A stretch of DNA of 64,000 nt from Acidimicrobiaceae bacterium (GTDB lineage Bacteria > Actinomycetota > Acidimicrobiia > Acidimicrobiales > JAUTXP01). Of this stretch, positions 1,066 through 56,368 are shown one piece after another. Location of the stretch: NCBI GenBank assembly GCA_030837965.1, contig JAUTXP010000047.1, forward strand, positions 1 through 64,000, given 5' to 3'. The position numbers and the translations under genes were made by a program. The notes beneath the pieces were generated by a model. It saw nothing but the letters and a program-made list of their open reading frames with translations. It did not search any database and was not told the origin of the DNA. Each line of letters begins with the position of its first letter. Position 1 is the first letter of the stretch.

Positions 1066-2640
1066 ATGCCGACTGACACGCTGCAACTTCAGGCGGTGGC
1101 CGCGCTCCGGCGGGCGCGGCGGTCTCGCAGGACCGATTCCCTCGACCACTTCGAGCTCTTCTACCGCACGTACATCGTGGCCCTGCTCGGCATGGTGGCC
1201 GTCGGCGTCGCCGCGTCCGCGCTCGGAGGGTCCCCGCTGGCCCAGCGCGCCACCGAAGACGTGGTGTCCCGCGGGCCGGATGTCCTGGCCCTGGTCGCGG
1301 CGGGGGTCGTGCTTGTCGGAGCGCGGTCAGGTGCCCGCGGCGGCCCGCTTGGGCTGGAGCAGGCAGACGTCCGGTACCTGCTCGAGGCTCCCGTCCCGCG
1401 GGGCGCAGTGATCCGGCCGCTCGCCCTGCGGCAGCTTCAGGCCTTGTTGGTGACGGCCGCGGCTACGGGCTCGGCCGCAGGCCTGCTGGCAGCACGGCGC
1501 TTGCCGGGTGGCGCGCCGGGTTGGATGGCGGCGGGCGCGGCGTACGGCGTCGGGCTGGCCTTGCTGGCATTCGGCACAGCCTGCGCGGCGAGTGGAACGA
1601 GGATGTCACGGGTGATGGCGACGCTGCTGGGAGCAGCAGCCGTCGCATGGGCCGCGGCCGACCTCGTCACCGGGAGCTCCACTTCGCCACTCGCGGCGCT
1701 TGCCACAGTCGGGATGTGGCCGATCGTCCCGGTACCCCTTGGCGCGGCCGCGGGATTGGTGGTCGTCCTGCTGTGTGTGACGACGTTCGGCTTGCGAAAG
1801 ATCGCAAACCTGTCCGTCGAGGACGCTGGGCGCAGGAGCAAGCTCGTCGGGGAGATGCGCTTCGCGGCCACGCTTCGGGACGTCCGCACGGTTCTGGTAC
1901 TGCACCGACAGTTGTCTCAGGACGTGCCGCGTCCGGATCCCTGGGCTGACCTTCGGAAGCAGACGACCGTACGGCATCCGGTCTGGCGCCGAGACTGGCA
2001 CGGTGTCCTGCGGTGGCGCTCCTCCCGGTTCGTCCGGATGGCGCAGCTGGGCGCCGTCGCCGGGTGGTGTACGGCCGTGGCGGCCCGCGGCACGGTCATG
2101 CTGTTCCTCGTGGGCGGCGCCGCATTCTGGATCGCCGCGCTCGACGCGGCGGATGCCATCGGGCAGGAGATGGACCACCCGTCCTTGCTGGAGTCGTATC
2201 CGCTGTGGCCACGGCGCGTGTTCGTCCGCCACCTTCCTGCCGCAATCGTCGTGATGCTCCTTCCTGCGTTGGCCGCGGGCGTCACCGCCAATGCATTCGG
2301 TCCTGGAGGTTTCAACGTGGCGGCAGTGGCAGCGATGACGTTCGCGGGAGCGGTAACTGCTGTCTGCGGCGCGATGGTGACGCTCGTGAAAGGCCCCCCG
2401 CCGCCCTTCGACCCGCTTGACCTCATCACCGCGCCCGAGGTCGCTTCGATGCGCAAGCTCCAGCAACTGCTCCTGCCCATCCTGATGGCAAGCGCAGCCT
2501 TGGGCGTCAGGACCGCGGCATCGGCGGTGTCGATTTCCATCATCGTCGCGGGCGGGACCCTCATCTGGTTGCGCGTTCGGGAGTCGACCTTGTTGCACAG
2601 GCTGCTTTCAGCGCTCACCCGGATAGTTGGACGGGTCTGA
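1066..2640 (+). CDS. ABC transporter permease-like membrane protein
   Basis: A 524-residue polytopic membrane protein with about ten hydrophobic segments in two blocks (residues about 35-240 and 330-510) separated by a charged cytoplasmic stretch (about 245-325, rich in Arg, Lys, Asp). No catalytic motif is visible. Its stop (2638-2640) overlaps the ATG of the next gene in a TGATG junction. That gene encodes an ABC ATPase, so this is most likely the membrane subunit of a two-gene exporter. The family resembles ABC-2-like permeases only loosely, and the substrate is unknown. ATG at 1066 is the first in-frame start giving a sensible N terminus. Confidence 0.7.
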   Translation: MPTDTLQLQAVAALRRARRSRRTDSLDHFELFYRTYIVALLGMVAVGVAASALGGSPLAQRATEDVVSRGPDVLALVAAGVVLVGARSGARGGPLGLEQADVRYLLEAPVPRGAVIRPLALRQLQALLVTAAATGSAAGLLAARRLPGGAPGWMAAGAAYGVGLALLAFGTACAASGTRMSRVMATLLGAAAVAWAAADLVTGSSTSPLAALATVGMWPIVPVPLGAAAGLVVVLLCVTTFGLRKIANLSVEDAGRRSKLVGEMRFAATLRDVRTVLVLHRQLSQDVPRPDPWADLRKQTTVRHPVWRRDWHGVLRWRSSRFVRMAQLGAVAGWCTAVAARGTVMLFLVGGAAFWIAALDAADAIGQEMDHPSLLESYPLWPRRVFVRHLPAAIVVMLLPALAAGVTANAFGPGGFNVAAVAAMTFAGAVTAVCGAMVTLVKGPPPPFDPLDLITAPEVASMRKLQQLLLPILMASAALGVRTAASAVSISIIVAGGTLIWLRVRESTLLHRLLSALTRIVGRV

Positions 2641-3314
2641 TGGCGGCCCTCACCGCAACAGGCCTGGAGAAGCGATACGAAGACAGCCTCGTGCTCGGGC
2701 CCGTTCACTTGGCCGTCGCTGAAGGCGAGCGGGTCGCACTCCTGGGCGTGAACGGGTCCGGCAAGACGACGTTGCTGCGCCTGTTCACCGGAGTCATCGA
2801 GCCGAGTGCAGGCACGGTGTCGGTGTGTGGCGAGCCGGCCGGTTCGCTGTCTGCCCGCGCCGCCCTCTCGTTCATCTCCGACACCCCGGTCTTCTACGAC
2901 GACCTGAGCCTGGCGGAACACCTCGAGTACATCGCAGGCCTGCACGGGGTTCGGGCGTGGCGCGACCGTGCGGAGGACTTGGTGGAACGACTCGGCCTCA
3001 GCGGGCGGGTGGACGATCTGCCCAACACGTTCAGCCGAGGACTGCGGCAAAAGGCGTCACTCGCCATCGGGCTGGTTCGGCCCCACCGGGTGTTGCTCGT
3101 GGACGAGCCTTACGTCGGCCTCGATGCAGCAGGCCGGACGGCATTCGAGCAGCTCATCGACGAGGCTTCCGCGGCGGGCGTGACCGTGGTGGTAGCCACG
3201 CACCAACTGGAGTCGGTCGGACAAGCCGTCCGATGTGTCGTGCTCGGCGAGGGCTCCATCGTGCACGATGGAGCCCTCGAGCCCGACGAGCTGACAACGC
3301 TCCTCGACCCCTAA
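2640..3314 (+). CDS. ABC transporter ATP-binding protein
   Basis: A 224-residue nucleotide-binding subunit. Walker A is GVNGSGKT (residues 36-43), a degenerate signature FSRGLRQ occupies the LSGGQ position (131-137), Walker B is VLLVDEP (151-157), and an ATH switch motif follows. The closest style is the CcmA/multidrug-type ATPase that serves two-component exporters. It is translationally coupled to the permease upstream by a one-base overlap of stop and start. The coding sequence contains a perfect 32-bp palindrome near its 3' end (3248-3279). The cargo cannot be predicted. Confidence 0.9.
   Translation: MAALTATGLEKRYEDSLVLGPVHLAVAEGERVALLGVNGSGKTTLLRLFTGVIEPSAGTVSVCGEPAGSLSARAALSFISDTPVFYDDLSLAEHLEYIAGLHGVRAWRDRAEDLVERLGLSGRVDDLPNTFSRGLRQKASLAIGLVRPHRVLLVDEPYVGLDAAGRTAFEQLIDEASAAGVTVVVATHQLESVGQAVRCVVLGEGSIVHDGALEPDELTTLLDP
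3248..3279. repeat. Perfect 32-bp palindrome inside the ABC ATPase gene
   Basis: The 16 bases at 3248-3263 are followed without a spacer by their exact reverse complement at 3264-3279. The centre reads GTGCAC. It encodes residues around 203-213 of the ATPase, 36 bases before the stop. It could act as an operator, a cruciform or a 3' RNA hairpin, or it could be chance. Confidence 0.85.
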
Positions 3315-3448
3315 CCGGCCGATCCCCCTTGGCACGACGGCTCGGGGGACACGAGCTGGCCGCCGTCTCCACGTTGGCGTCAGCGATCGCCGCTGTCGTG
3401 GCCCGCGACCTGTTGGGCGGGGTGAGCCGCAACGGCCGTGCGGACGCC

Positions 3449-3670
3449 GGAGTGTTCGTGTGATGACACCCAGGTCACGCCAGGTGTGCGACTGACGGTC
3501 GGTGCGTTGCGCGGCCGGGTCTTGGTCTTCTGTCGGAGGCGTTCGGAGGGCGTCTGTCCATCGAGGCCGCCGTGGGGCCGGTGGAAGTTGTAGAAGTCCT
3601 CCCAATCCTTGAGCTTCTCGTTGAACAGCCCGATCTCGGAATCGTCGGAGACGAGGACCGCGTTGCGGTC
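3449..3670 (-). pseudogene. Truncated IS481-family transposase, C-terminal remnant
   Basis: On the minus strand a fragment of about 70 residues carries the hallmark C terminus of IS481/IS3-type integrases: FNEKLKDWEDFYNFHRPHGG, then a G-x-TPSERLRQK segment, and an end reading PGVTWVSSHEHS that runs into the element end at 3449-3467. The N-terminal helix-turn-helix and the first two residues of the DDE triad are absent, because the sequence beyond about 3670 is unrelated. This is a decayed element. The terminal repeat matches the facing ends at 482-539. Confidence 0.8.
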
Positions 3671-3794
3671 CTCGTCCCGCTCTCGCCTGCGCGGCTCGTC
3701 AGGGGGGCGGGTGGGGGCTCGCACGGCGACCGGCTGCGAGGGTCTTGGCCACGACCGTTCCGTTCGGACGTGACGTGTAGCGTCCGGGGCGGTC

Positions 3795-6700
3795 ATGACC
3801 GCGATAGGGCAGACGGCGGCAGTGTTGGGGAACCCTGCATTCCTCTTCACCTTTGCCGTGATCCAGGCCGGCGTTCTGCTGGTCATGATCCGCTATCTCG
3901 ATCTCTACGATCGCCAGCCGCTTGGCTTCGTGGCGCTGGTGGCCGTTTGGGGTGCGACCGGTGCGGCGGCGATCTCGGTGATCGGCAACGGGTTCGTGAA
4001 AGGACTCCTCAGTGGGGACGTCCGGGTCGTCTTCGGCGACGCCATCGCCGCCCCTCTGGTTGAGGAGGCGGCGAAGGGACTCGCGCTGTTGGCCGCGGTG
4101 GGACCGGTTCGCGCACTGGCTCGCCGCGCTGGCATCAGCCTCTTTGAAGGTGTCGGCGCAGGGGTGGTGTATGGCGCGGCAGTGGGGATCGGCTTCGGCT
4201 TCACGGAGGATGTCGCCTTCCTCGTCGACACGGCGCGCACCCAGGGGATCGAGGCTGGCTTCCAAACGTTCATCTACCGGCGGGACTTCTTCGGGCCTGC
4301 GATCCTGCACCACGCCTTGTTCACCGCAGCACTCGGAGCGGGGCTCGGCGTTGCGATGTGGACTTCCCGCCGCGCCCTCAAGGTCGTTCTTCCGATGGCC
4401 GGCTTCGTCGTCGCGGTGTTGATGCACGCCGTCAACAACGGCTTGGTCGAGCTCGTGGTGGTGATCAAGCACGGGGTCCGAGTGGCGTCGATCTGGGTCA
4501 CCGCACCCTCGCTTGCCCCGACGGCGCAGAGGACAGCCGACCGCTTGACGGCCGTGATGCGCGTGATCGACTTTTTGTATCTTTCGATGTTCCTCGCGGT
4601 CATCGCGCTGTGGACACTGCGCCAACGGCGCATCATCCAGGAGGAGCTCGCCGAAGAAGTCGACCTCGGCCTGATCACGTCGAAGGACCACGCGCAGATG
4701 TTCGACGTGGCCCAGCGCAGTGCGGGACAGTGGAGGCTGTTGCGCACCGGGCAGTTGGAGCGGTTGCGACACGAGCGCCGGCTGCGCCGGGAGCTGGCCC
4801 AGCTCGGCCTCCTGAAATGGCGGACCCGGCGTTTCGGCGGAAGCTCGGCCCGTCTGCAACGCGCCCGTCGGCAGATCGCAACGTTGTCGACCTACGAGAT
4901 CGCGGCGTTCGAGGCTCCCGTACCGGCGACGCCTCTTATCGGCCGGGACCACGAGGTAGCGGAGATCGTCGGCCTGCTGGCCAGACCCGATGTGCGCGCC
5001 GTCACGCTGACGGGCCCAGGAGGCACTGGCAAGACCCGTCTGGCCATCGAGGCGGCATCGGCGCAACGCGACCGCTTCTCAGGTGGGGTGTACTTCATCG
5101 AGCTTGCGGCGGTTTCCGATCCCGAACTCGTCCCCTCGGTCATCGCCCACGTGCTCGGAGTCCAGCCCGCGCCGGGCGAGTCGGTCGTGGATGCGCTGGG
5201 CGAGCACCTTCGGGACAAGCATGTGCTTTTGGTGCTCGACAATTTCGAGCAGGTGATCGACGCGGCCCCGGCTGTCGCGCGAATGCTGACGGCGGCGGGT
5301 CGGGCCAAGCTGCTCGTGACGAGCCGTCAGCCGCTCCGGATCGCCGGTGAGCACGAAGCCCCGGTTCCTCCGTTGTTGTTGCCCGACCCCGACGCCGGCA
5401 TCGATTCGCTGGCCGACAACGCCGCGGTTGCGCTGTTCGTCGGCCGGGCGCGAGCCGTCGACCCCGGGTTCGACCTGTCCGCCGCGAACGCTGCCGCGGT
5501 GGCTCGAATCTGCATCGCCCTCGACGGGCTTCCGCTCGCCATCGAGCTCGCGGCGGCCCGTATGAACGTCCTTGCCCCCGAGGCCATACTCGAACGCCTC
5601 GGACGGCCCCTTCACGTGCTCACGGCAGGCGGGCGCGACGCCGACGCTCGCCACCGCACGCTGCGGGGCGCGATCGACTGGAGCTACGACCTCCTCGATC
5701 CCGCCGAGCAGACCTTGTTCGCCCGTCTGGGCGTATTCGTCGACGGAGCCGACCTCGCGGCGGTTGAGAAGGTCTGCCTCGATCGCGACGATGCAGCCGA
5801 CACGGTCCTCGACACCCTCAGCTCACTGCTCGACAAGAGTCTGGTGCGGCGAGGAGACGGGGCCGGCGCGGAACCGCGCTTCGGGATGCTGGCGACGATC
5901 CGCGAGTACGCCGTTGATCGCCTGAATGCAAGCGGCGAGCTCGCGGCCCAGCGCGAGCGCCATGCCCGCTACGTCGCCGAGCTTGCCGAGCGTGCTGAAG
6001 AACACATTCACGGTCCGGACCAGGCGCTGTGGATGGCGCGGCTGGACCAGGAGGTTGGGAATTTCCGCGCCGCCCTCTACTGGTGTGAGGTGACCGGCGA
6101 GATCGAGCTCGGGTTGCGTCTTGTGGGCGCCCTTCCGCGGTTTTGGAGCGTGCGGGGACTGACGGACCCGCCGCGTTGGCTGGCCTCGGCGCTCGAAGGC
6201 GGCCAAGTCGTCGCCGCGCCCGTGCGGGCCAAGGCACTGTTCGCGGCCGGATACGCGGCACTCGACCACGGCGACTTCGTCCGGGCCGAGGAGCACTTCG
6301 CGGCAAGCAGGGACGCCTACCGCCAACTCGACCAACCGACAGCCGCCGCCGCCTGCTCGGCCCAGCTCGGGGTCTTGCTCATGGCCCGTGGCGAGCACGA
6401 GCGAGCCGTCGCCCTGGCTGAGGAGAACCTTGCCGTCGCTCGGGGGCTGAACGATCGCCGCGTCGAATCGCTGGCACTCAGCACGCTGGCCGACGGCGCC
6501 ACGCGCGCCGGAAACCTCGATCGGGCAAGCGACCTGTACGAACAGAGCCTGGCGCTGCAGCGCCAGTTGGGTGACCGCCGCACGATCGGCGCCGAGCTGC
6601 TGAACCTGGGTCGGGTCGAGCTCCTGCGGGGCAAGCACGGGCGGGCTCATGCCGTCCTCGAGGAGGGCCTGGAAACGGCCCGCGAGGTCGGTGATACATG

Positions 6701-7121
6701 GAGCATCTCGGTGGGCCTCGCCAGTCTCGGTCGCCTTGCCCTCGCCACCGGCCGTCATGCCGAGGGCGCCGAGCTTTTGGGGCAGGCGTTGGAGCTGGCC
6801 GTCCAGCGCGGCGGTCAGCGGGTCGCCGCCGAATGCCTGGCCGCTCTCGCCGACGCGGCGAGGTCCGACGCGCCGACCCGCGCCGTGCGCCTGCTGGCGA
6901 GCGCCGAAGCCCTGCGACGTGCCGCGGGCGTTTCGCTGTCTCCCGTAGAGCTGGCATTGACGCCGGAGGCCCTTGACGACCTCCGGCAGGCGCTGGGCGA
7001 GGATGAGTTCGGCAGGCACTGGGAGGCCGGGCTTGCCCTCCCGATCGGGGATGGCGTGGCCTACGCTCTATCCGGCACGTCGAAGGGTCAGGCCAAGGGC
7101 GGTGCGTTTGATCGAGGGTGA
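3795..7121 (+). CDS. PrsW-type intramembrane protease fused to NB-ARC-like NTPase and TPR repeats
   Basis: A 1108-residue three-part protein. Residues 1-275 are a polytopic PrsW-like metalloprotease with all motifs in place: EEAAK (90-94), GFGFTED (133-139), HH at 172-173 and HAVNN (211-215). A charged, partly helical linker (276-375) follows. Residues about 380-700 form an AfsR/NB-ARC-like NTPase with LIGR, Walker A GPGGTGKT (407-414), Walker B LLVLDN (478-483), LLVTSRQPLRI and GLPLAIELAAARMN (577-590). The C-terminal part to about 1050 is a TPR superhelix. PrsW proteins cleave membrane substrates such as anti-sigma factors. NB-ARC/TPR modules are signal-sensing switches of the STAND class. 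The inferred role is a membrane protease gated by a STAND-like sensor. No helix-turn-helix is present. Its stop overlaps the GTG of the next gene, a lipoprotein that may be partner or substrate. An IS remnant lies just upstream. Confidence 0.85.
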   Translation: MTAIGQTAAVLGNPAFLFTFAVIQAGVLLVMIRYLDLYDRQPLGFVALVAVWGATGAAAISVIGNGFVKGLLSGDVRVVFGDAIAAPLVEEAAKGLALLAAVGPVRALARRAGISLFEGVGAGVVYGAAVGIGFGFTEDVAFLVDTARTQGIEAGFQTFIYRRDFFGPAILHHALFTAALGAGLGVAMWTSRRALKVVLPMAGFVVAVLMHAVNNGLVELVVVIKHGVRVASIWVTAPSLAPTAQRTADRLTAVMRVIDFLYLSMFLAVIALWTLRQRRIIQEELAEEVDLGLITSKDHAQMFDVAQRSAGQWRLLRTGQLERLRHERRLRRELAQLGLLKWRTRRFGGSSARLQRARRQIATLSTYEIAAFEAPVPATPLIGRDHEVAEIVGLLARPDVRAVTLTGPGGTGKTRLAIEAASAQRDRFSGGVYFIELAAVSDPELVPSVIAHVLGVQPAPGESVVDALGEHLRDKHVLLVLDNFEQVIDAAPAVARMLTAAGRAKLLVTSRQPLRIAGEHEAPVPPLLLPDPDAGIDSLADNAAVALFVGRARAVDPGFDLSAANAAAVARICIALDGLPLAIELAAARMNVLAPEAILERLGRPLHVLTAGGRDADARHRTLRGAIDWSYDLLDPAEQTLFARLGVFVDGADLAAVEKVCLDRDDAADTVLDTLSSLLDKSLVRRGDGAGAEPRFGMLATIREYAVDRLNASGELAAQRERHARYVAELAERAEEHIHGPDQALWMARLDQEVGNFRAALYWCEVTGEIELGLRLVGALPRFWSVRGLTDPPRWLASALEGGQVVAAPVRAKALFAAGYAALDHGDFVRAEEHFAASRDAYRQLDQPTAAAACSAQLGVLLMARGEHERAVALAEENLAVARGLNDRRVESLALSTLADGATRAGNLDRASDLYEQSLALQRQLGDRRTIGAELLNLGRVELLRGKHGRAHAVLEEGLETAREVGDTWSISVGLASLGRLALATGRHAEGAELLGQALELAVQRGGQRVAAECLAALADAARSDAPTRAVRLLASAEALRRAAGVSLSPVELALTPEALDDLRQALGEDEFGRHWEAGLALPIGDGVAYALSGTSKGQAKGGAFDRG

Positions 7122-7699
7122 TCGTTGTGGCACGTCGCTCCCCGCGTAGCCGAAGGACGAGGACGATCGGAGTCGGAGTCGTGGTCGCCGTGCTCACTCT
7201 CGGAGTCACAGCTTGCGGCGACGGCAGCTCAGGAGGTGGACCAGTGGCATCCGAACCCCCCAACCGGGTGTCAAGGCCCGGTGAGGTCGCCTGCGGGAGC
7301 GACTTCCACTTGCCTCCCGCTGTCCACCTTCGTTTGGAAGGGCACTTCCCCAACACGGTTGGCGCCGGGCAGAACGCCGTGAACGGCACTGTGGATGTCA
7401 GCGCCGACCAAGCGGTAAAGGGGATGGCGGCTCCGGCGGTCGACGCCTTCCTCGTCCGCCAGGGCAAGGTCGTGACCACGCCGTTGCCGCAGGACGCGAT
7501 GGGCGTTCGTTTTGATCTTGCCGCGGGCGAGACCAAGAGCGTCGTGGCCATGGGCTCACTCGTCGCTTGTGGGCAGGCCGGCGGGCACGTGCCACCGGGC
7601 GACTACGAGTTGTATGCCCGGTTCGTGCTCATCCCGGATGACGGGGTGCCCGCCACAGCCTTCGGCGGGCCGTGGCCGCTGGCGGTGAGAGCACAGTAA
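7118..7699 (+). CDS. Lipoprotein of unknown function
   Basis: A 193-residue protein with a basic N terminus, a hydrophobic segment and a lipobox ending VTAC, followed by a Gly/Ser linker, so it should be anchored outside the membrane. The rest is a beta-rich domain without a recognised family. GTG at 7118 overlaps the TGA of the PrsW-NTPase gene (GTGA); GTG at 7127 is an alternative start. The overlap makes co-translation likely, and a link to the upstream protease is an inference from position only. A strong hairpin follows the stop. Confidence 0.75.
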   Translation: MIVVARRSPRSRRTRTIGVGVVVAVLTLGVTACGDGSSGGGPVASEPPNRVSRPGEVACGSDFHLPPAVHLRLEGHFPNTVGAGQNAVNGTVDVSADQAVKGMAAPAVDAFLVRQGKVVTTPLPQDAMGVRFDLAAGETKSVVAMGSLVACGQAGGHVPPGDYELYARFVLIPDDGVPATAFGGPWPLAVRAQ

Positions 7700-14233: not shown

Positions 14234-15208
<975 letters not shown>

Positions 15209-15303
15209 CGACCTGCATGCTACGACCGCTTCGTCCAATGCGACTGTCGACATGCCTGTAGGACGTGCGGCGACGGACGAACTCGTCGGTGGCCCCACGG
15301 ACG

Positions 15304-15352
15304 TTCTCGTCATGGTGCCCACGCCCGCGATCCGAACTCACCATGCCAAGAA
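15304..15352. promoter_or_regulatory. Large palindrome, copy A, in a divergent promoter region
   Basis: Outer arms TTCTCGTCATGGTG and CACCATGCCAAGAA (14 bases, two mismatches) enclose 21 bases that include CCGAACT. It lies between the divergent sigma factor and lipoprotein genes. It resembles the 46-bp palindromes at 50424-50469 and 58789-58834 in its TGCCAAGAA arm and CGAACT inner motif. Confidence 0.55.
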
Positions 15353-16106: not shown

Positions 16107-16147
16107 CAGCAGGACCAAACGCGCGCCGGGGGGCGCACACGTTCTTT

Positions 16148-16153
16148 GGAGGA
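16148..16153 (+). promoter_or_regulatory. Ribosome site that fixes the RTX start
   Basis: GGAGGA is a full Shine-Dalgarno match with four bases to the ATG at 16158. It rules against the in-frame TTG at 16146, which would lie upstream of its own ribosome site. Confidence 0.8.
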
Positions 16154-16157
16154 ACGA

Positions 16158-19100
16158 ATGCAAGAGGGACTGGGGAGCACGCACGGAGTACCGACGCCGC
16201 CGACGCCACCGTCGGCGCCGACCGGCAGGACCCGATCGAAGCGGGCCCGACTGGGCGCGGTCACGGCCGCCTTCGTCGGCGTGTCCGTGGGCCTGTTCGC
16301 GTGGGCCCAGGCGGGCGCGGCCGAGGACCCCAACGCGGGCAAGCTGCGCGCCGGGCTCCAGAGCTTCGCGACCAAGGCGGCGCAGTTGGCGTCCAGCCCC
16401 GAGCTGACGCGCGCCGTGCCCATGACCGGTATCAACCCGGCCCAGACCCTGAGCCTCGACCACGTCTTCAACGACGTGATGGCCGCCATCCCGACCAACG
16501 CCACGAGCGTGGGCGACCTGGCCGACAAGCTGAACGACCCGTCGATGGACGCCGACTACGGCACTGCCGCCGTGCACGTAATCGTGGGTTGTGCCACCGG
16601 CGAGTCGTCCCCCGGCGACTGCGTCAACGCGTCGACCCAGACGCTGCCCAACGGGCACATCACCCTCACTGTCCCGCTGCGAGCCCGGCGCGTCGTCAAC
16701 ACGCCGTTGAGCCTCGACACGGCCTCGTTCACCTTGAACGGCGGCACCCTCCAGGCCGCGGCCACGTTGGCGACCACCCTCACCTTCGACCTCGACCCGA
16801 CCGTCGCCGACCCGGCCCACGCGTTCTCGCTGGTGTCACCCGCCACCCTCACCTTCGGCGTGGCCGTGGACGACGCCAGCCCGCTGGCCTTCACCGCCCA
16901 CCTCGGCTTCACCGACGTGACCGTGGGCGGCACCATCACGACGGCGCGCCTCGGCGTGGTGGGCACCCTCGTCGACCCCGACGGCAGCGGCGCCATTACC
17001 CAGGACGAGTGGACGAGCACCAACCTCCAGGACCTCGTCACCCTGACGCCGAGCGGCGCGGTGGACGCGGCCCTCACCCTGGACACCCCGCTCACGTCGG
17101 CCTCGCCCGACGCCACTCTCCCCGTCAACGTTCCTAGCGTCGGCGCCGACTTCCCGCCCGTCGCCGTGCCCGGTCTGGGCAGGCTGGCCGACTTCTCCAA
17201 CGTCCAGCCCGAGACCGTCGTGGCGGGCCTGAGCCAACTGGCCAACGGCCTCCAGGGCCTCAAGCAGGCGGGCGACCCGCGCCTGCCCTTCCTGGGCGAC
17301 GGACTGGGCAAGGTGCTCGACGTGGCCCAGCCCGTGCTCAACCTGGTGGACCGCGAGAGCGTGGTCTGCGGCACGGCCAACGGCAATCCGCCCACCGGCG
17401 ACGTGAGCCACCTCCCGGCCAACGCCGAGGTCTTTTGTCAGGCCCGCGTGAGCGCGGACCCGACCACCGCAGTCACGTGGACCATCGCCAACGGCACCCC
17501 GGCCACGGTCACCTCGCCCGCGGCCGACCACACCGTGGGCCTCCACCCCGACCACACCGTGTCATTCCACATGGCCACGCCCGGCACGCCCGACGTGACC
17601 GCGGCCTACTCGGTGGGCGCGCAGCAGCTTCACATCGGGCGCCCGGCCCTGACCGCGCAGCAGCTCAAGGACCAGCTTCGCGACGTGGCCGGCTTCCAGG
17701 ACGTCCCCGACGCGGTGCACTACGAGGAGGCCGACCGGGCCCTCGTGTTCCATCTGCGCAAGACCTTCGACCCGGGCCAGACGCCGCACACCGATCCGGG
17801 CGACACCCAAGGCCACACCGTCACCTTCGACATCGGCGACCAGCTTCAGGCCATGGGCATCAAGGGCCTGTCGCCCGGCTCGACGGCCAACGTGCAGATC
17901 GACACCGGCCAGGTCACGTTGGACCTGAACTTCGGCGTGCTGCTCGTCCCCCAGGCCACTGACATCACCCCCGCGGACAACGGCGACGCCGCCGCCCCGC
18001 CGGGCGAGGTCGACCGCTTCTTCTTGAAGGTCAACCCGAGCGCGGCCGAGCTGTCCTACCAGGACGCGGCCATCACCGCGAACCTCGACGTGAAGGGCGC
18101 CATCGGCTACCTGGAAGTGGCCGCCACCGGCGACGGCACTGCTCCGGGCGCGGACGGCCACGCCTTCGAGATCACCAAGCGCAGCGACCGCCCCGCCACC
18201 GACCCCGTGCTTGCCGTCAACCTCGACGGGCCCGGTATCTCGGAGACGGTGGACGGCAGCGCCCACGCGGTGGCCGCCGCCATCCGCATCCGCGACCTGC
18301 TCGGCCATCTCACGAGCAACGTCCACGCCGACCTCAACGCCCAGCTCCACGCGGGCCTGGCCGTGTCGACGTCGTTGTCGGGCACGCAGATCGCGGGAGG
18401 CAAGGTCGGCGTGTCGTGGCCCAACGTCACGACCGGCGTGCCCACCGTGCAGGCCGACACCGCGTTCGGCGACAGCCTGCGCCAGTTCGGCAACATCCTC
18501 GGACCCGATCCGGCCCATCCCGACCCCCAGGCCCTGCTCGGCCTGATCCTCGACAACCTCGACTCGATCGCGCACGGGTTCGACTCGGTGGCGGGCAGCG
18601 CGGGCCCGATCTACGACACCCGGCTCCCGCTGGTGGGCATCTCGGCCCGTGACGTGGTGACCCAGTTCCGCCGCATCCAGGCCGTCAACGACGAGCTGCG
18701 AGGGGCACCGGGCCCGGTTCTGGCCTGCGGCACTCTCGACCGCGACACGACGGCCAACCCGCCCCGGCCGCTGCCGTCCATGCCCGCCAACGCCAGCCTC
18801 GACGCCCTGCCGCCGGGCACGACGACCGTGTATTGCGCGGCCACCAACCCCAAGAACGCGACCGCGGTGCACTGGTCGGTGGACAACGCCACCGCCGCTC
18901 CTGCCAACGCGGGCAATGTGGCCACGGTGAAGGGCGCGCCCGACGCGACCTTCTCCTTCACGGTCACCGACAAGCAGGCCGCCAGCGACGCCAACCCGAC
19001 CGGGTGGAAGGTGAAGCTCGACTTCACCGACGAGGACGGCGACCACAACGTCGAGATCCCCGAGGTGGTGGCGCCCACCACGCTCCAGAAGCTCGAGCGG

Positions 19101-22100
19101 GCCATCGAGGAGAAGCTGCACCTGCCTGCCGAGGCCCTGACCTTGGCCCTCAAGGACTTCAACGGCCAGAAGAACCTCGTGATCCGCCTGAACTTCAGCG
19201 AGTGCACCGACGGCACCAACGCCGACCCGGCCCAGCACAACATCGCCGTCGCGGGCTGCGCGGTGGGCGACCGCACCGTGCCCAAGAAGTCCATCCCGAT
19301 CGCGTTCGACCTAGGCCCGTCCGGCGGCCTGGTCGGCATCGGCTCCAACTCATCGGTGAACCTCGAGTACATCGCCAGGGCCAAGCTCAACCTGGCCATC
19401 CCGCTGTCCGCCTCGCCCGTTCCGCAGATCCTCGACTCCAGTGGCGTCGACCTCCAGGCGGGCCTGTCGGCCAACGACTTGAACGTGACGGCCAACCTCG
19501 GCCCGCTGTCCATCCAGCTCGGCACGGCGGTGGACACGGACACCAGCACCGCGGCCATCGACCACGGGCATGGCGCGGCCGTCTTCGGCGCGGGCTTCAC
19601 CCTCAGCAGCCCCAACAACGCGCCCGCGCCCGAGGCCAGCGAGACGCCGCAGTCGATCACCACGTTCGCATCGGGGGCCCAGGCCCGGTTCACCAACCCG
19701 GCGACCACCGCCCAGGGATGCGGCTCGCTCGACGACGACAACGACCCGAACACCGAGCCCGTCGACCTCGACCACGGTGTGGGCTGCGCCCGTCTCGCAG
19801 TCGGATTCGGCGGACACTACGACGGCGACCTCGGCATCAAGATCACCAGCCTCAGCCCGTTCTCGGCCACGCCCTACATCCCGGCCGCGCTCCAGAACGA
19901 TCTGGCCCACGCCGCGCTGGACTGGACGGTGCTGCTCCAGGCCCTGCCCAACCTGCTGGACCGGTTGGAGGCCACGCTCGACGGCACCTCGGCCAACACC
20001 AAGCTCCCGCTCGTCGGCGACACGCTCGACGCGGGCGCCAACGTGGTGGGCAACCTGCGCGACCACATCGTCACGCCCCTGGCCAACCTGGGCCAGCAGG
20101 TCAACGCCGTCGTGCTGGACAACACCGACTACAACGGCAGCGGCTCGGCCGACGCGCTCGACGTCCACGACAAGATCCAAGACCTCGTCTTCCAGGCCAC
20201 CAGCACCAACGGCCACTTGTTGCAGGACTCGTTGACCGCGTCGCCCGGCACGGTCGACAAGCAGGACGTGGCCGTGACCATGGTCTGCTCCGGCCACCCC
20301 TGCATCGCGGGTGATCCGCTCACGTCCATCGAGGACGCGCGCCTGACCCTCGCCCTGGGCCAAGGCCTGGGCGCGACTGGCCTGCCCGCACAAGGCTGCG
20401 ACGCGTCGTGCGTGGCGGGCATGGCCCTGCCCTTCGACATCGGCCTCGACGGCCTGCCCCTTCGACTCACCGGCTCCATCACGCCGCACGTCGGCTGGCG
20501 AGCCCTGATCGACTTCGGCCTGAGCCGGGCCGACGGCCCGTACCTCGTGGTGGCCGGACCGGGCCACGGCTCCAGCCCCGAGCTGCAAGTGGGCGCGGGC
20601 GTTGGGCTGGGCACGGCCTCGTGCGACCCGGCCGACCCCAATACCTTCCCCGGACGCCCGGCCGACCTCGGCGGGTACTCGGAGAACACGTGCCTCACCG
20701 GCACCCTCGGCTTCCTGGGCGTCAGCGTCCGTGACGGCGCCGATGCGGCCCACGCCACGCCCAGTGCGGACGACGACCCGACCGGCATCAATCTGTTGGC
20801 CACGGTCGACCTGAACCGGCGTTCGGGCAGCGGCGACCGCATCAAGCTCCTCGACATCCCGTCCGCCCTGGGCGCCGACTTCTCATTGAGCGCCGACGCC
20901 AACGTGGACGCCCGCGTCCGCACCGGCCTCCGGGTCGGCGAGGCCGCGGGCCTGCCGTCGATCTACGGCACCTTCCACCTCGGATGGCACTGGGGGACGG
21001 GGACCGGCGGCCAGCCCGTCAACTCCACCACGCCCACCATCTCCTTCGGCGACCTCTATCTCGACGCGGGCGGCTTCATCACGCAGTACCTCCAGCCGCT
21101 CACCAACGAGGTCAAGAACATCACCTCGCCGCTCAAGCCCATCATCGACACGTTGCAGGCGCCCATCCCTGTGGTGTCCGACCTGGCCGAGCTGGTGGGG
21201 GCCGACCCCATCACCCTCATCAGCCTGATGCGCGCCATCGGCGGGTCCGACCTCGACGTGGTCGACAGCGTCATCGCCTTCATCGACTTCGCCAACCACC
21301 TGCCCACCGACAGCGGGCTCATCCCGCTGGGCGGCCTGGCCAGCGGAAGCCGTCAGCCGGGTTCCTTCAACGTCGACGCGTCGAAGGCCAAGAGCGGGCC
21401 GCAGACGCCCACCACCGCGGGCCAGCTCGTGCAGCCTGTCGCAGGCGGGTCCGGCGCGTCGCTGCTCGACGAGGTCAGCGGCCACGACCGGCCCGTGCCC
21501 GCCATGCACGAGGACCGGCCCAGCACCTTCGGCGTCCCCGGCCTCAGCTTCCCGATCATGGAGAACGCGGGGAACATCTTCTCGGTGCTTATGGGCCAGG
21601 ACCAGACGCTGGTCCGTTACGACCTCGGCACCATGTCGGCCACCGCCGGCTTCAGCTACAGCTTCGGGCCGTTCTTCATCGGCCCTGTGCCCGTCACCGT
21701 CAACCTCGGCGGCTCGGCCACGATCAACGGCCGCTTCGCCTTCGGCTATGACACCAGCGGCCTGCGCAAGGTGTTGGCGGGCGGCTCGGGCGAGCACCTC
21801 TTCGACGGCATCTTCCTCGACGACCTCGACAGCCACGGCGTCGACGTGCCCGAGGTCCAGCTCATCGGCGAGGTGACCGCGGGCGCAGCCGTCGACCTGG
21901 TCGTCATCTCGGCCGGGATCGAGGGCGGCCTGCGGCTGACCGTGAACCTGAACCTCAACGACAGTCCGAACCCGGACGGCAAGCTGCACATCGAGGAGAT
22001 CTTCAACAAGCTCAACAACCCGATCTGCCTGTTCGACGTGTCGGGGTCGCTCGACGCCTTCCTGCGGGCCTTCGTGGAGATCGACCTGTTCTTCTACTCG

Positions 22101-25100
22101 GACCGCTTCGAGTTCGAGCTGGTCAACATCACGCTGCTCGACTTCTCGAGCTCGTGCCAGCCGCCGCAGCCGGTGCTGGCCGTGCTCAATCCCACCAACG
22201 GACAGCTCACCCTGAACATGGGCTCCGACGGCCGACGCCACGACCGCCAGATCAGCGTGGACGAGATCAACGAGAAGTTCACCGTGCGAAAACTGGGGCC
22301 AGGACGCGTGTCCGTGTCCGCCTTCGGCGCCTATCAAGAGTTCGGCGACTCGGCCCACCCGGTCACGTCCGTGTACGGCGACGGGGACACGGGTGACGAC
22401 GTCGTCTCCCTGTTGCCCGGCGCCAGCAACACCGTCGATCAGAACGCGGCGGGCACCACGGCGACGGTCAGCGGTCCGAGCACCGAGACGTTCGACATCC
22501 CGGCCACCATCAACGGCGGCCCGGGCTCGGACGCCATCACCACCGGCGACGCCAACGACACCATCCATGGCGACGGCGGCGCGGCGACGCCGCTGGCGGA
22601 CGGCAACGACAAGATCAACGCGGGCGGCGGGGCCGACACGGTGTTGGGTGACGGCGGCGACGACCAGATCGACGGCCAGCTCGGCGACGACACGCTTCTG
22701 TCCGGCGGCGTGGGCAACGACACCGTCAACGGCGGCCCGGGCGCGGACGTGATCCACGGCGATGAGAACAACGACGCCCTGACCGGTGGACCCGGCAGCC
22801 AGGCCGCCGACCCGGCCCACCCGGAGGCCAAGGACGACTTGGGCGACACCATCGTCGGAGGCTCGGGCGAGGACAGCATCCAAGGAGGCTTCGGCGACGA
22901 CTTCCTGCACGGCGACACGGACTTGGGCACCGACTTCGAGACGGCCTGCGCCAACAACGCCACCGGCGGGTTCGCACCGCCGCCGGCAAGGGACCAGGTC
23001 GACGGCGGGCCGGGCACCGACCTGCTCACCGGCGGACGCTACACCGACTCGCTCGTCGGCGGGGACGGCAACGACTTCCTGTGCGGCAACGCGGGCAACG
23101 ACACCATCGAGGGCGACAGCGACACGTCGACCGCACCGGGCAACGACAAGGCCGACGGCGGTTCGGGCAACGACGTTGTCAGGGGCCGTGCCGGCGCCGA
23201 CCTCCTGCGGGGCGGCAGCGGCAACGACCACGTGCTCGGCGGGATCGGCAATGACGACATGCTCGGCGGCACCGGCCGCGACCTGCTGGAAGGCGAGGCG
23301 GGTGTGGACGTGGTGCTGGGCGACGACGGCACCATCGACGCGGCCCGCGTGGCCCATGTCGGCTCGTCGTCGGGCTCGGACAGCGCGTGGAACTGCGCGG
23401 CCTACTCGCAGACCGACGCCACGCCCGGCAACGCCGACTGCATCAACGGCGGGTCCGAAGGGGACCTCCTCTATGGCGAGGGCTCGGCCGACCAGCTCTT
23501 CGGCGAGGACGGGGCCGACTACATCGAGGGCAACGCCGGACCCGACCAGGTCCGAGGCGGCCGCGACGGCGACACCATCCACGGCAACAACGGGGCCGAC
23601 CACCTCTTCGGCGACAGCGGCAATGACACCATGTTCGGCGACGCCGACTGCGACGAGCTTCGTGGCGGCATCGGCGACGACCACATCGAGGGCAACGGCG
23701 GGGCGGACACCGCCTTCGGCGACGCCGACCAGGACGACATCATCGGCGGGTCGTCCATCGCGGGTGCCGAGGACAACCAGGCCGACTGCGCCGACGGACT
23801 CGGCCTGCGCGGCGACCGCCTCATCGGTGGCGCAGCCCAGGACGTGATCCTGGGCGACAACGGCACCGTCGTGCGGCCCAGCCCCACTGCGGTGGACCCG
23901 GACGACAACGCGCCGGTCCCGCCGCTGTCGGCCACGGTGGCCCGCACCGTCACGCTGCTCGACGTGAACAGCCAGGCCGACGCCATCGCCGGCCCGGACT
24001 TCATCGACGGCGGCGAGGCCAACGACCGGCTGTACGGCCAAGGCGAGAACGACGACATGCACGGCGGCAACGGCATCGACCGCATGGAGGGCAACGCGGC
24101 CTCGGACGCCATGTTCGGCGACGGCGGCAACGACCTCATGCTCGGCGGCTCATCGGGCACCCCGGCCAGTGACCGGGACGCGGGCGACGCCATGAACGGC
24201 GGTGGCGACGACGACGTGATCGTGGGCGACAACGGGGCCATCGCGTGGAACGGCAGCGTCACGCCGCCCACCGGCGAGAACGCAGTGACCTTCGGTGTCG
24301 ACACCATCCACGGCAACGACGGCTACGACCGCATCTACGGCGAACTGGCGGGCGACTCCCTGTACGGCGACGCGGGCGGCGACTACATCCTGGGCGACCG
24401 GGGCACGGTGACGCCGGTGTCGACGCCGGTGGCCATCTGGCCGGGCGGGGCCCGCAACAACAGCGTGAGCCTGTTCTCGCCGGAGACGGGCGGCCTCGAC
24501 TTCATCTATGGCAACGGCGGCGACGACCACCTGTACGGCGGTTGGGCCAACGACACCATGGAGGGCGGCCCGGCCGACGACTACATGGAGGGCAACGGCG
24601 GCAAGGACCGGATGTTCGGCCTGGCCGAGAGCCCGACGATGGCCGAGAGCCTGGAGGCCGGGCCCATCCCGGTGGGCACGGGCGACCAGGACGACATGAT
24701 CGGCGGCTCGTCGTCCACCGACAGCCCGGACCCCCGCAAGGACGAGGGCGAGTTGGAGATGCGCGGCAACCTCGAGCAGGACGTGATGGCGGGCGACAAC
24801 GCCGACATCGTCAGGACGGTCAGCGTCAACCCGGCCGTGTGGGCGGTGGACAACATCACCGGCGGGGCTGCTCGCTCCGTCACCCTGCTCGACCGGGAGA
24901 AGACGGGCGCGGCCCTGACCGTGGTCAGTGGCGGCGACACCATGCTCGGCAACGAGGGCAACGACCGCATGTACGGCCAGGGCGGCCAGGACGTGATGAA
25001 GGGCAACGCCCAGGACGACTATCTCGAAGGCAACCAGGACGCCGACCAGGTCGAGGGCAACTCCGACGAGGACGACGTGATCGGCGGCAGCTCGCTCCAG

Positions 25101-53621: not shown

Positions 53622-55208
53622 CTAACGGACATCGGCCAAGAGCAGGGGCGGGGTGTGGACGTGGGTGATGGACGGGTCGCGGCCCACCACGTCCTCGGCC
53701 ATCTCCAGCGCGTCCCGCAACGTCGACGCGGGCTTGAACCCCAGCCTGCGCACGGCCTTGGGATCACCGCCCACGATGATCACCGCGCCCAAGTGCTGCA
53801 TGGCGTGCGCCCCCCAGTACCACATGTAGAACGGATGGACCCCGTGGTACGCGTTGGTCGTGCGGTACAGGTGCACGTACCACGGGTCGGTGGCGTAGCG
53901 CTCCTCGTAGGTCTTTTCGATCTCGAGCGGGTCGGTGGTGTCGGCCAGCACCTCGTCGAAGAAGTCGATGTAGCTGGGATGGTGCACGGGGTGGAACTCC
54001 CACGGGGTCGGGTGGCTCATGATCACCGCGCCGCCCTCGCGCACGAGGGGCTTGCCCCGGTAGAGGTTGAAGAAATAGCCGAGCCCGAGGCACATCACGA
54101 GGATCGGGTTCATCACCGAGTTCACGTTGTACGGGCAGATGTAGGGCAGGCCCATGGTGAGGACGTCGGTCTGGCCGCTCACCTCGACGAGCTGCTGCCG
54201 ATAGACGTGCTCGGTGGTCTGGGCGTGCACGGCCTCGACCTCGCCCGCCTGCACGCTGGTCAGGTCGTACGGCGAGCGGATGCCGTGCAGGATCTGCCGG
54301 GACAGGCGAGTGGGCGTGCGGTCCAAGGCCTTGCTCGACGCCGCGAACAGGGCCCGGTCCTTGGCCGACCACTCCCACTCCCGCTTGGACAGGAAGCTGA
54401 ACTGGTCCGGGAAGGTGCGGTTGTTCAGCGTGGTCTCGATCTGGAACACCTTGACGCCGCTGGCCGCGATGAGCTTGCCCATGCGCCAGTTGGACGAGTG
54501 CAGCTCCGAGCGGTGCTGGTCCATGAACGACCGGCTGTGCTGCATGGTGCGCACGTTGTGGTGGTGGCGCAGGCTCCGGTACGACGACAGGCCGGTGGCC
54601 ACGCTCTTGTGGCCGCCGTCCATGGCCACCAAGTTGATGTTCACGTAGACGATGAGGTCGCTGGTGGCCGCCCGCTTGTTGATCTCGACGTCCTCGCCCT
54701 GCTCGGTCTGGCCCAGGAACGTGAGGTTGTCCGGGTCCTCCGCATCGTGCTGGGTCAGCAGTCCGTTGGGCGCGAACGCGTCGAAGACCCGGTCGCCCAG
54801 CGCGTGGCGTAGCTCGTCGTCGGTCATGCGCCGGTGCAGGGCCAGCGCGGCCACGAGCTGCACATCGTCAACGCCCTTTTCGGCGGCCACGTCGAGGACG
54901 GCCTCGATGACCCGCTGGCGCACGTCCGGCCCCTTCATGGGCGGCAGCGGCAGCGACACGTCGTCGAAGCAGATGGTCAACCTCATGCCCGGCCGCAAGA
55001 GGTCGGGCAGTGGGGCCGAGTCGCCCAGCGGGTTGCGCAGGGCATGGCGGATGGCCGCGTCCGGGTCGGGCAGGCCGGCGAGGGGCTCGGGCGGGTAGAT
55101 GACGCGGCTGCCGGGCGGGAGCTGTTCCAGCCGGTAGCCCTCACCGTGCCAGAAGAGGGTGGGCGGGGTGGAGCGGTCGACGTCGAGGACGAACCCAGGG
55201 CGGGGCAA
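53622..55208 (-). CDS. LarA-like nickel-dependent racemase family protein
   Basis: A 528-residue protein of the LarA/DUF2088 family. It shows LTICFDDVSLPLPPMKGPDV, the catalytic region VAALALHRRMTDDEL, and DGGHKSVATGLSSYR with the Lys that in LarA carries the nickel-pincer nucleotide, followed by LRHHHN. Lactate racemase activity is not implied: the family is broad, and neither larB, larC nor larE is seen in the window. Start TTG 55208 is five bases after the stop of the dehydrogenase gene. It lies in an operon with lipid genes. Confidence 0.7.
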   Translation of the reverse strand: MPRPGFVLDVDRSTPPTLFWHGEGYRLEQLPPGSRVIYPPEPLAGLPDPDAAIRHALRNPLGDSAPLPDLLRPGMRLTICFDDVSLPLPPMKGPDVRQRVIEAVLDVAAEKGVDDVQLVAALALHRRMTDDELRHALGDRVFDAFAPNGLLTQHDAEDPDNLTFLGQTEQGEDVEINKRAATSDLIVYVNINLVAMDGGHKSVATGLSSYRSLRHHHNVRTMQHSRSFMDQHRSELHSSNWRMGKLIAASGVKVFQIETTLNNRTFPDQFSFLSKREWEWSAKDRALFAASSKALDRTPTRLSRQILHGIRSPYDLTSVQAGEVEAVHAQTTEHVYRQQLVEVSGQTDVLTMGLPYICPYNVNSVMNPILVMCLGLGYFFNLYRGKPLVREGGAVIMSHPTPWEFHPVHHPSYIDFFDEVLADTTDPLEIEKTYEERYATDPWYVHLYRTTNAYHGVHPFYMWYWGAHAMQHLGAVIIVGGDPKAVRRLGFKPASTLRDALEMAEDVVGRDPSITHVHTPPLLLADVR

Positions 55209-55213
55209 GAGGC

Positions 55214-56368
55214 TCAGCGCCTTTCTGTACGTAGGTCGAAGGCGATCTTCACCGCGCCCCGCCTGCCCGCGTGGGCGGCGTGGTCGACGGCCTCGCGATA
55301 GCGGTCGAGGGGGTAGAGGGCGGACACCAGCCTGCCCAAATCTGCTTGTGCGACAAGGCCGAACGCGTCGTGGAAGTCCTCGGCGGTGTAGGCGTAGGCG
55401 CCCTTCAGTGCCACCTCGCGATGCCACAGCGGCGTGAGATCGATGGACGTGGTGCCCGCCATGCCGACGAGGACGACGGTTCCTCCGGGGGCCACCACCT
55501 TGAGGGCTTGGGTGACGGACTGCCGCGAGCCGACACAGTCGAACACCGCGTCGACGCCGCCGGTGAGCTGGCCGTCTGCGCGCGCGTTGTCGGTGCGCAG
55601 GCTGGACGTGGTCCGGCGCACGCCGCGCTCGATGTCGTCCACCGCGGTCGCGCCCAGTCCTGTGGCCAGGAGCTTTTGGTGGGGGTGCTTGGCCGAGACG
55701 AGCACCGGACGCTCGGAGAGCAAGCGCAGGGCGGCGACCGTGCACAGGCCCAGGGTGCCCGCGCCGATGACGGCGACTGCTCCGCTTGCACCGTCGGGCG
55801 GAACCAGTCGGGCCGCGTGCAGCGCGCAGGCGGTGGGCTCCACCATGACCGCGGTCTCGTCGCTCATGCCTTCGGGAACGCGGTGGAGCTGCGAGTCGTG
55901 GGCGACGAGGGCGTGGCCCCAACCCCCGCCGGTGTCCTGGCAGAACCCTGTCTGCAAGCCGGGGGAGAGGTGGCCGAAGGCCTGTCGCTCGCACAGGTTG
56001 GTGCGACCGGCCTGGCACTGCGGGCACGACGGATCGATGCCGCGCGCCGCGCAGGCGAGGGTTGCGGCCAACGCCACGCGAGTGCCGTCGTCCAGTTCGC
56101 CCACCACCTCATGGCCGGGTGTGAAGGGGAAGCTGACGATGGGCTCGAAGTAGCGGGAGCTGTGCCCGTCGATGGTGGCCAGGTCGGAGCCGCAGATGCC
56201 CGACAGGCGCGGCCGCACCCGATGCCAGCCCGGACCCGGGGGCGTGGGCCCGTCCACGTCCTTCAAGCTGAGCGGCCCGACACGCGCCCCTCGCCCGGGA
56301 CTGATGCGGCCTGCGATGGCCGCCGCCGCGTACTTGGGGATGGAGCGCTCGAAGACGAGCGCCTTCAT
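55214..56368 (-). CDS. Zinc-dependent medium-chain alcohol dehydrogenase
   Basis: A 384-residue MDR-family enzyme. Catalytic zinc ligands lie in GICGSDLATI and GHEVVGEL, the structural zinc Cys cluster is seen in CAARGIDPSCPQCQAGRTNL, and the Rossmann motif is VAVIGAGTLGLCTVAA. The substrate is not known. In this operon it follows a fatty acyl-CoA reductase, so a fatty alcohol/aldehyde is a reasonable guess. The start region is repeated three times in tandem (56352-56402); the third ATG, at 56368, is in frame. Confidence 0.88.
   Translation of the reverse strand: MKALVFERSIPKYAAAAIAGRISPGRGARVGPLSLKDVDGPTPPGPGWHRVRPRLSGICGSDLATIDGHSSRYFEPIVSFPFTPGHEVVGELDDGTRVALAATLACAARGIDPSCPQCQAGRTNLCERQAFGHLSPGLQTGFCQDTGGGWGHALVAHDSQLHRVPEGMSDETAVMVEPTACALHAARLVPPDGASGAVAVIGAGTLGLCTVAALRLLSERPVLVSAKHPHQKLLATGLGATAVDDIERGVRRTTSSLRTDNARADGQLTGGVDAVFDCVGSRQSVTQALKVVAPGGTVVLVGMAGTTSIDLTPLWHREVALKGAYAYTAEDFHDAFGLVAQADLGRLVSALYPLDRYREAVDHAAHAGRRGAVKIAFDLRTERR

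What the first reader, a model, noticed from the sequence alone, without database searches (positions are those of the whole stretch)
3795..7121. PrsW intramembrane protease joined to a STAND-like NTPase and TPR sensor
Seen: complete PrsW motifs (EEAAK, GFTED, HH, HAVNN) in residues 1-275, an intact Walker A/B NB-ARC-like NTPase (380-700) and a TPR end, in one frame with no helix-turn-helix. Known: PrsW proteins cleave membrane anti-sigma factors, and STAND NTPases with TPR sensors switch on an N-terminal effector on ligand binding, sometimes in antiphage immunity. Inference: a signal-gated membrane protease, possibly a defence or envelope-stress system. A VapC toxin and IS remnants nearby fit an accessory island. 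I do not know a described case of this fusion.
Basis: partly seen in the sequence, partly recalled or inferred. Interest (0 to 1): 0.8.

Follow-up and report, generated by a model that had tools for sequence, protein, structure and literature searches.

The report
Membrane protease fused to NLR-like switch
One actinobacterial gene joins a complete membrane-embedded protease (PrsW) to a cytoplasmic ATP-driven switch with a ligand-sensing end, a combination also found as one gene in one distantly related bacterium; it looks like a signal-controlled protease, probably regulatory, with no evidence so far that it is a defence system.

Summary
Window 3795-7121 (+) is one 1108-aa reading frame: a PrsW-family membrane protease (about 1-275), a cytoplasmic helical tail (275-365), a short linker, an NB-ARC/STAND NTPase (about 385-712) and a TPR array (about 781-1093). 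It is not an assembly join. A Solirubrobacteraceae MAG encodes the same fusion in one 1200-aa frame, 65% identical, with low pN/pS in every segment. The PrsW residues E90/E91/K94, E138, H173, H211 and N215 are invariant in 24 relatives. Walker A and B and other NB-ARC motifs match those of 17 STAND relatives. Predicted folds are APH-1-like (protease) and Apaf-1/MalT/STAND-TPR-like.

The fusion is rare: found in the window's genome and one other, from roughly 1,000 genomes searched and a motif scan of about 85,000 species. Elsewhere the PrsW half, tail included, stands alone, and related STAND halves carry HTH, BTAD or cyclase domains instead. The two genomes share no neighbouring genes. No defence model fits the whole protein. 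PrsW fused to other signalling domains is already described, so this is a new variant of a known kind.

Most likely it is a ligand- and ATP-gated intramembrane protease acting in regulation. Gating, substrate and ligand are inferred, not shown.

The parts
3795..7121 (+). PrsW-STAND-TPR fusion gene, 1108 aa
   Evidence: full-length homologue L068:4947-8549, 65% identical
3834..4622 (+). PrsW membrane protease domain (residues 14-276; Pfam PF13367 at 41-223); the models read as seven membrane helices
   Evidence: Pfam; AlphaFold models; APH-1-like fold Z 13.6
4062..4439 (+). PrsW active-site motifs: E90 E91 xx K94, E138, H173, H211 xxx N215 (span)
   Evidence: invariant in 24 aligned relatives
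4617..4889 (+). Cytoplasmic helical tail (residues 275-365), also present in standalone PrsW relatives
   Evidence: alignments; helices
4890..4934 (+). Fusion joint / linker (residues 366-380); 33% identity to L068, model pLDDT under 50 at 362-378
4947..5930 (+). NB-ARC/STAND NTPase with its helical/winged-helix part (about 385-712)
   Evidence: Pfam; Apaf-1 and NRC1 NB-ARC matches
5013..5036 (+). Walker A GPGGTGKT (407-414)
   Evidence: G409, G410, G412 and K413 each 17/17 in STAND relatives
5226..5249 (+). Walker B LLVLDNFE (478-485)
   Evidence: D482 and E485 each 17/17
6135..7073 (+). TPR sensor array (about 781-1093)
   Evidence: Pfam TPR_12; MalT domain III, Rap and NprR matches
7118..7699 (+). 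Predicted lipoprotein (193 aa) whose GTG start overlaps the fusion's stop (GTGA); likely co-translated here but not found near the homologue L068

Best explanation
A signal-gated intramembrane protease. The PrsW bundle sits in the cytoplasmic membrane with its C-terminus inside. Its native cytoplasmic helical tail connects to a STAND ATPase and TPR array in the cytosol. Binding of a ligand (small molecule or peptide) to the TPR array is expected to open the ADP-bound NB-ARC, allow ATP binding and oligomerisation, and so cluster or re-orient PrsW so that it cuts a membrane-anchored substrate, most plausibly a regulator such as an anti-sigma factor. Shown here: domain content, conserved active-site and NTPase motifs, conservation of the fusion in a second genome, and predicted folds. 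Inferred: topology, oligomerisation, gating, substrate and physiological role.
For: One frame with both complete modules. The fusion is conserved at 65% identity in a genome whose partial 16S is about 81% identical, with purifying selection in PrsW, tail, NTPase and TPR alike. All PrsW catalytic residues are invariant among relatives. The PrsW model matches APH-1 at Z 13.6, against 7.2 for the first unrelated row. The STAND part matches the STAND-TPR protein 6mfv, Apaf-1, NLRs and MalT. The tail after the last membrane helix is strongly basic, 21 K/R against 12 D/E in 274-380, as expected for the cytoplasmic side. Both halves of the two fusions group at 100/100, so the fusion was inherited as a unit. 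PrsW joined to PilZ, cNMP, FHA or Zn-ribbon domains has been proposed to act as signal-coupled signaling peptidases (PMC3482391), and a PrsW-PilZ protein is described in Leptospira (PMC12943098). Relatives of the STAND half carry regulatory outputs.
Against: No substrate or ligand is identified and no gene neighbour is shared between the two genomes. Only two genomes carry it. PrsW gating by any fused domain has not been demonstrated experimentally in what I could read. The relative placement of the PrsW and STAND parts in the full model is uncertain (pTM 0.66, pLDDT under 50 at 362-378).
Confidence: 0.5

Rival explanations
1. A bacterial NLR-like immune or cell-death protein: phage or stress sensing by the TPR/NB-ARC part unleashes PrsW against membrane proteins and kills or arrests the cell.
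For: STAND with an N-terminal effector and C-terminal sensor is the layout of antiphage STAND proteins (background knowledge). Patchy distribution, foreign-looking composition of genes 1066-7699, and a PIN gene and IS remnant nearby.
Against: Only a generic PADLOC TPR model hits; no defence family in the Pfam scans of neighbours; no relative of the PrsW half in the viral collection; nearest STAND relatives have regulatory outputs; the homologue lies in a different neighbourhood.
Confidence: 0.15
2. PrsW cuts its own chain at the tail or linker to release the STAND-TPR part from the membrane, as proposed for PrsW in polymorphic toxins.
For: Autoproteolytic release of C-terminal domains is proposed for PrsW toxins (PMC3482391). 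The joint at 366-380 is the least conserved and least ordered segment.
Against: The released part would have no recognisable output domain. The tail is native to standalone PrsW proteins, so it is not a purpose-made cleavage linker. The joint lies about 90 residues beyond the membrane domain.
Confidence: 0.12
3. The PrsW half serves mainly as a membrane anchor or receptor for the STAND switch and no longer cleaves anything relevant.
For: APH-1 in the gamma-secretase complex shares the fold; in that complex it is a structural subunit (background knowledge).
Against: All catalytic residues are retained in both fusions and pN is low in the PrsW part.
Confidence: 0.1
4. Two genes joined by a frameshift or assembly error.
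For: The window is from a fragmented, 88-contig genome, and PrsW relatives are otherwise standalone.
Against: The same fusion occurs in a separately assembled MAG, at 65% identity, with aligned joint and selection signal.
Confidence: 0.01

Closest known systems
PrsW-PilZ / PrsW-FHA / PrsW-cNMP / PrsW-Zn-ribbon signaling peptidases (PMC3482391; Leptospira LIC_20173 in PMC12943098)
   Same: PrsW membrane protease joined to a signal-sensing domain, proposed to be coupled to an internal signal; catalytic motifs kept
   Different: Here the partner is an ATP-driven STAND switch with a TPR sensor, which could oligomerise; no described PrsW-STAND/NB-ARC/NACHT case was found in the paper library
Standalone actinobacterial PrsW (Rubrobacter, Nocardioides, uncultured actinobacterium L069)
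   Same: Same membrane domain and the same cytoplasmic tail; 28-38% identical over residues 1-370; L069 is the sister of the fusion clade
   Different: They end at the tail, and no STAND gene lies within 5 kb
STAND-TPR regulators of actinobacteria (SARP/BTAD, XRE-HTH, cyclase-STAND) and MalT
   Same: NB-ARC-like NTPase followed by TPR, 30-41% identical; MalT domain III fold match Z 24.5
   Different: Their outputs are DNA-binding or cyclase domains; here the output position is a membrane protease
Bacterial NLR-like defence proteins (Avs, bNACHT) and Apaf-1/plant NLRs
   Same: N-terminal effector, NB-ARC-type switch, C-terminal repeats; Apaf-1 and NRC fold matches
   Different: No defence model fit, no defence neighbourhood, and an intramembrane protease as effector is not described to my knowledge
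PrsW polymorphic toxins (PMC3482391)
   Same: N-terminal PrsW followed by a large C-terminal part
   Different: The C-terminal part is an NTPase-TPR module, not a toxin domain, and the PrsW half groups with standalone PrsW proteins

Membership tests
PrsW family (PF13367, MEROPS M82) | Pfam model above gathering cut-off | tested here: met
   93.4 bits against 23.5
PrsW family (PF13367, MEROPS M82) | Motifs EExxK, FxxxE, H, HxxxN/D | tested here: met
   E90 E91 K94, F134/E138, H173, H211/N215, invariant in 24 relatives
PrsW family (PF13367, MEROPS M82) | Multi-helix membrane fold related to CPBP/APH-1 | tested here: met
   Model pLDDT 86; APH-1 Z 13.6, rmsd 4.2 over 216 residues, above unrelated rows
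PrsW family (PF13367, MEROPS M82) | Proteolytic activity | not testable with these tools
   needs biochemistry
PrsW sensu stricto (RsiW site-1 protease, NF033739) | NCBIfam equivalog cut-off | tested here: not met
   25.4 bits against 225; it is a family member, not this equivalog
STAND NTPase / NB-ARC | NB-ARC model and Walker A/B with GLPL-type motifs | tested here: met
   25.2 bits against 23.5; motifs conserved with 17 relatives
STAND NTPase / NB-ARC | NB-ARC fold | tested here: met
   Apaf-1 Z 24.8 over 426 residues, rmsd 5.8; NRC1 NB-ARC Z 24.1 over 308, rmsd 4.2; 6mfv E 1.2e-12
STAND NTPase / NB-ARC | ATP-dependent oligomerisation | not testable with these tools
   needs purified protein
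TPR-sensor STAND (MalT / AfsR type) | C-terminal TPR array | tested here: met
   TPR_12 48.6 bits; MalT domain III Z 24.5, rmsd 4.5 over 340 residues
TPR-sensor STAND (MalT / AfsR type) | DNA-binding output domain | tested here: not met
   no HTH or BTAD in Pfam or NCBIfam scans
Antiphage STAND (Avs / bNACHT) | Match to known defence model | tested here: not met
   PADLOC gives only a generic TPR model
Antiphage STAND (Avs / bNACHT) | Located among defence genes | tested here: not met
   Pfam and PADLOC scans of neighbouring window genes show ABC transporter, lipoprotein, YibE/F, sigma factor and others; the L068 neighbourhood was only partly annotated
Antiphage STAND (Avs / bNACHT) | Confers phage resistance | not testable with these tools
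   needs phage assays
PrsW polymorphic toxin | C-terminal toxin domain | tested here: not met
   C-terminus is NB-ARC plus TPR

The most novel reading that the evidence does not exclude
A bacterial NLR in which the effector is an intramembrane protease: ligand-triggered assembly switches on PrsW and gives immunity or programmed cell death by proteolysis inside the membrane.
Probability: 0.12. Interest if true: 0.8.

Novelty: new variant of a known kind. Interest (0 to 1): 0.5.

Why it matters
How PrsW proteases are switched on is not well understood. A natural fusion to an ATP-driven switch with a defined sensor makes the question testable in one polypeptide: mutate the Walker A lysine or delete the TPR array and measure cleavage. 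It would also add a membrane-embedded protease to the outputs that STAND/NLR-type switches can carry.

Tried and rejected
Assembly or frameshift artefact: rejected by the independent full-length homologue. Defence system: no specific PADLOC match, no defence neighbours in the scans made, no PrsW-half relative in viral contigs, and only the STAND half on plasmids. Conserved operon partner: only the fusion itself is shared between the window and about 35 kb of the G866 contig, apart from a weak 33% ABC-type match. Split version with PrsW and STAND side by side: none within 5 kb of 79 standalone PrsW loci. Other PrsW-STAND fusions: in a phylum sample, 99 of 396 genomes had a PrsW match, and the window's was the only one in a frame over 800 aa. 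Long frames in the order sample (G142, G070, G026) were read and carry no NB-ARC by eye; those of G142 and of one G070 locus look like toxin-type PrsW, the second G070 frame is a related PrsW, and G026 is a standalone PrsW behind a spurious upstream frame. A first mixed alignment (A2) misplaced the PrsW tails and was discarded. Dating transfer by synonymous change failed: rpoB and the fusion show similarly high synonymous divergence. Foldseek alone gave no significant hit for the PrsW model; the VIA re-alignment did.

Full report
Observation. Window 3795-7121 (+) is one open frame of 1108 aa starting with ATG. Pfam assigns PrsW-protease to residues 41-223, NB-ARC to 386-591 and TPR to 853-924, and no helix-turn-helix. 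The frame has coding-type codon-position composition.

Is the fusion real? Searches of the window's order, class and phylum gave only the window's genome with a PrsW in a frame of this length. These samples overlap; together they cover roughly 1,000 distinct genomes. A motif scan of GTDB genome contigs (84,980 species) with the PrsW half returned 80 loci. The best, L068 in a Solirubrobacteraceae MAG (JAUXSD010000182.1), continues in one frame of 1200 aa through the NTPase and TPR parts. Identity is 73% in residues 1-240, 70% in the tail 276-365, 33% at the joint 366-380, 65% in the NTPase and 61% in the TPR part. pN is about 0.19-0.24 against pS of 0.50-0.58 in every segment. So this is a functional fused gene, and the two MAGs were assembled independently.

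Origin. The whole of residues 1-365, including the stretch after the membrane domain, aligns with standalone PrsW proteins of about 330-370 aa from Rubrobacteria and other actinobacteria; Nocardioides relatives are more distant. The cytoplasmic tail is therefore native to PrsW, and the STAND module was attached at its end. The STAND-TPR half is 30-41% identical to proteins carrying XRE-HTH, BTAD, OmpR-type HTH or nucleotide-cyclase domains, as I read them from their sequences. In trees of each half the two fusions group at 100/100; the nearest PrsW relative is the standalone L069 (98/95), though on long branches, and the nearest STAND relative is unresolved. Each of the two genomes has no other close STAND of this type. 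The fusion was thus probably made once and inherited as a unit.

Spread. Partial 16S of the two hosts is about 81% identical, yet the fusion is almost as conserved (65%) as RpoB (about 69% over filtered columns). Genes 1066-7699 have GC3 0.77-0.82 against 0.915 (sd 0.044) for 81 other genes of this genome, and the homologue is also below its contig mean, 0.88 against 0.93. No neighbouring gene is shared. Horizontal transfer is likely but not proven; synonymous sites are too diverged to date it.

Structure. The PrsW part (residues 1-370, 24 sequences) folds with mean pLDDT 86. Its best solved matches are APH-1 of gamma-secretase (Z 13.6, rmsd 4.2, 216 residues) and chains of the multipass translocon and BOS complexes (Z 13.0 and 12.4), well above the next row at 7.2. 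This agrees with the published PrsW-APH-1 relationship (PMC4602095). The full-length model has mean pLDDT 85 and pTM 0.66, with a disordered joint at 362-378. The NTPase-TPR part matches the STAND-TPR protein 6mfv (Foldseek E 1.2e-12), Apaf-1 (Z 24.8, 426 residues), NRC1 NB-ARC (Z 24.1), MalT domain III (Z 24.5) and peptide-binding Rap/NprR proteins (Z 20-27). TPR repeats match many proteins, so the ligand cannot be read from this.

Mechanism. The models read as seven membrane helices in the PrsW part (my reading). The tail after the last one is strongly basic, so the NTPase should be cytoplasmic. By analogy with other STAND proteins, ligand binding at the TPR array would permit nucleotide exchange and assembly, and assembly would activate or cluster the protease. 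That is an inference. The substrate is unknown; an anti-sigma factor is only the best-known kind of PrsW target, and this protein falls far below the RsiW-PrsW equivalog cut-off. The lipoprotein gene overlapping the stop codon (7118-7699) may be co-translated but was not found beside the homologue.

Comparison with what is known. PrsW domains fused to PilZ, cyclic-nucleotide, FHA and Zn-ribbon domains were described in 2012 and proposed to be signalling peptidases (PMC3482391), and a PrsW-PilZ protein is described in Leptospira (PMC12943098). Full-text searches found no description of PrsW with NB-ARC, NACHT or STAND; the library covers open-licence papers only. This is therefore a new variant of a known kind.

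Verdict. Observation confirmed; the signal-gated protease reading is well founded in anatomy but untested; the defence reading has no positive support beyond the general NLR-like layout and the island-like setting. The fusion is rare, clean, and offers a direct test of how PrsW is switched on.

Noticed in passing
L173 (G070:C8) and L172 (G142:C118): PrsW-like N-termini followed by what look, by eye, like toxin-type C-terminal parts (a peptidase-like HExxH-type end, and a nuclease-like end), resembling the PrsW polymorphic toxins of PMC3482391. Pfam finds only the PrsW part in the L173 protein.
   Followed up: partly
window 16146-26897 +: A single 3583-aa reading frame with strong coding composition; not analysed.
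   Followed up: no
window 1066-7699: Block of low-GC3 genes (a putative ABC permease, ABC ATPase, the fusion, a lipoprotein) that looks acquired relative to the rest of the contig.
   Followed up: partly
window 53622-56027 -: 801-aa protein with a lactate-racemase N-terminal domain (Lar_N) at residues 309-501, preceded by about 300 unassigned residues.
   Followed up: no
window 14234-15322 -: ECF-type sigma factor with a weak SnoaL-like C-terminal match about 7 kb downstream of the fusion; a link to the protease was not tested.
   Followed up: no
L068:8250-8549: The homologue has about 90 extra C-terminal residues after the region shared with the window protein; not analysed.
   Followed up: no
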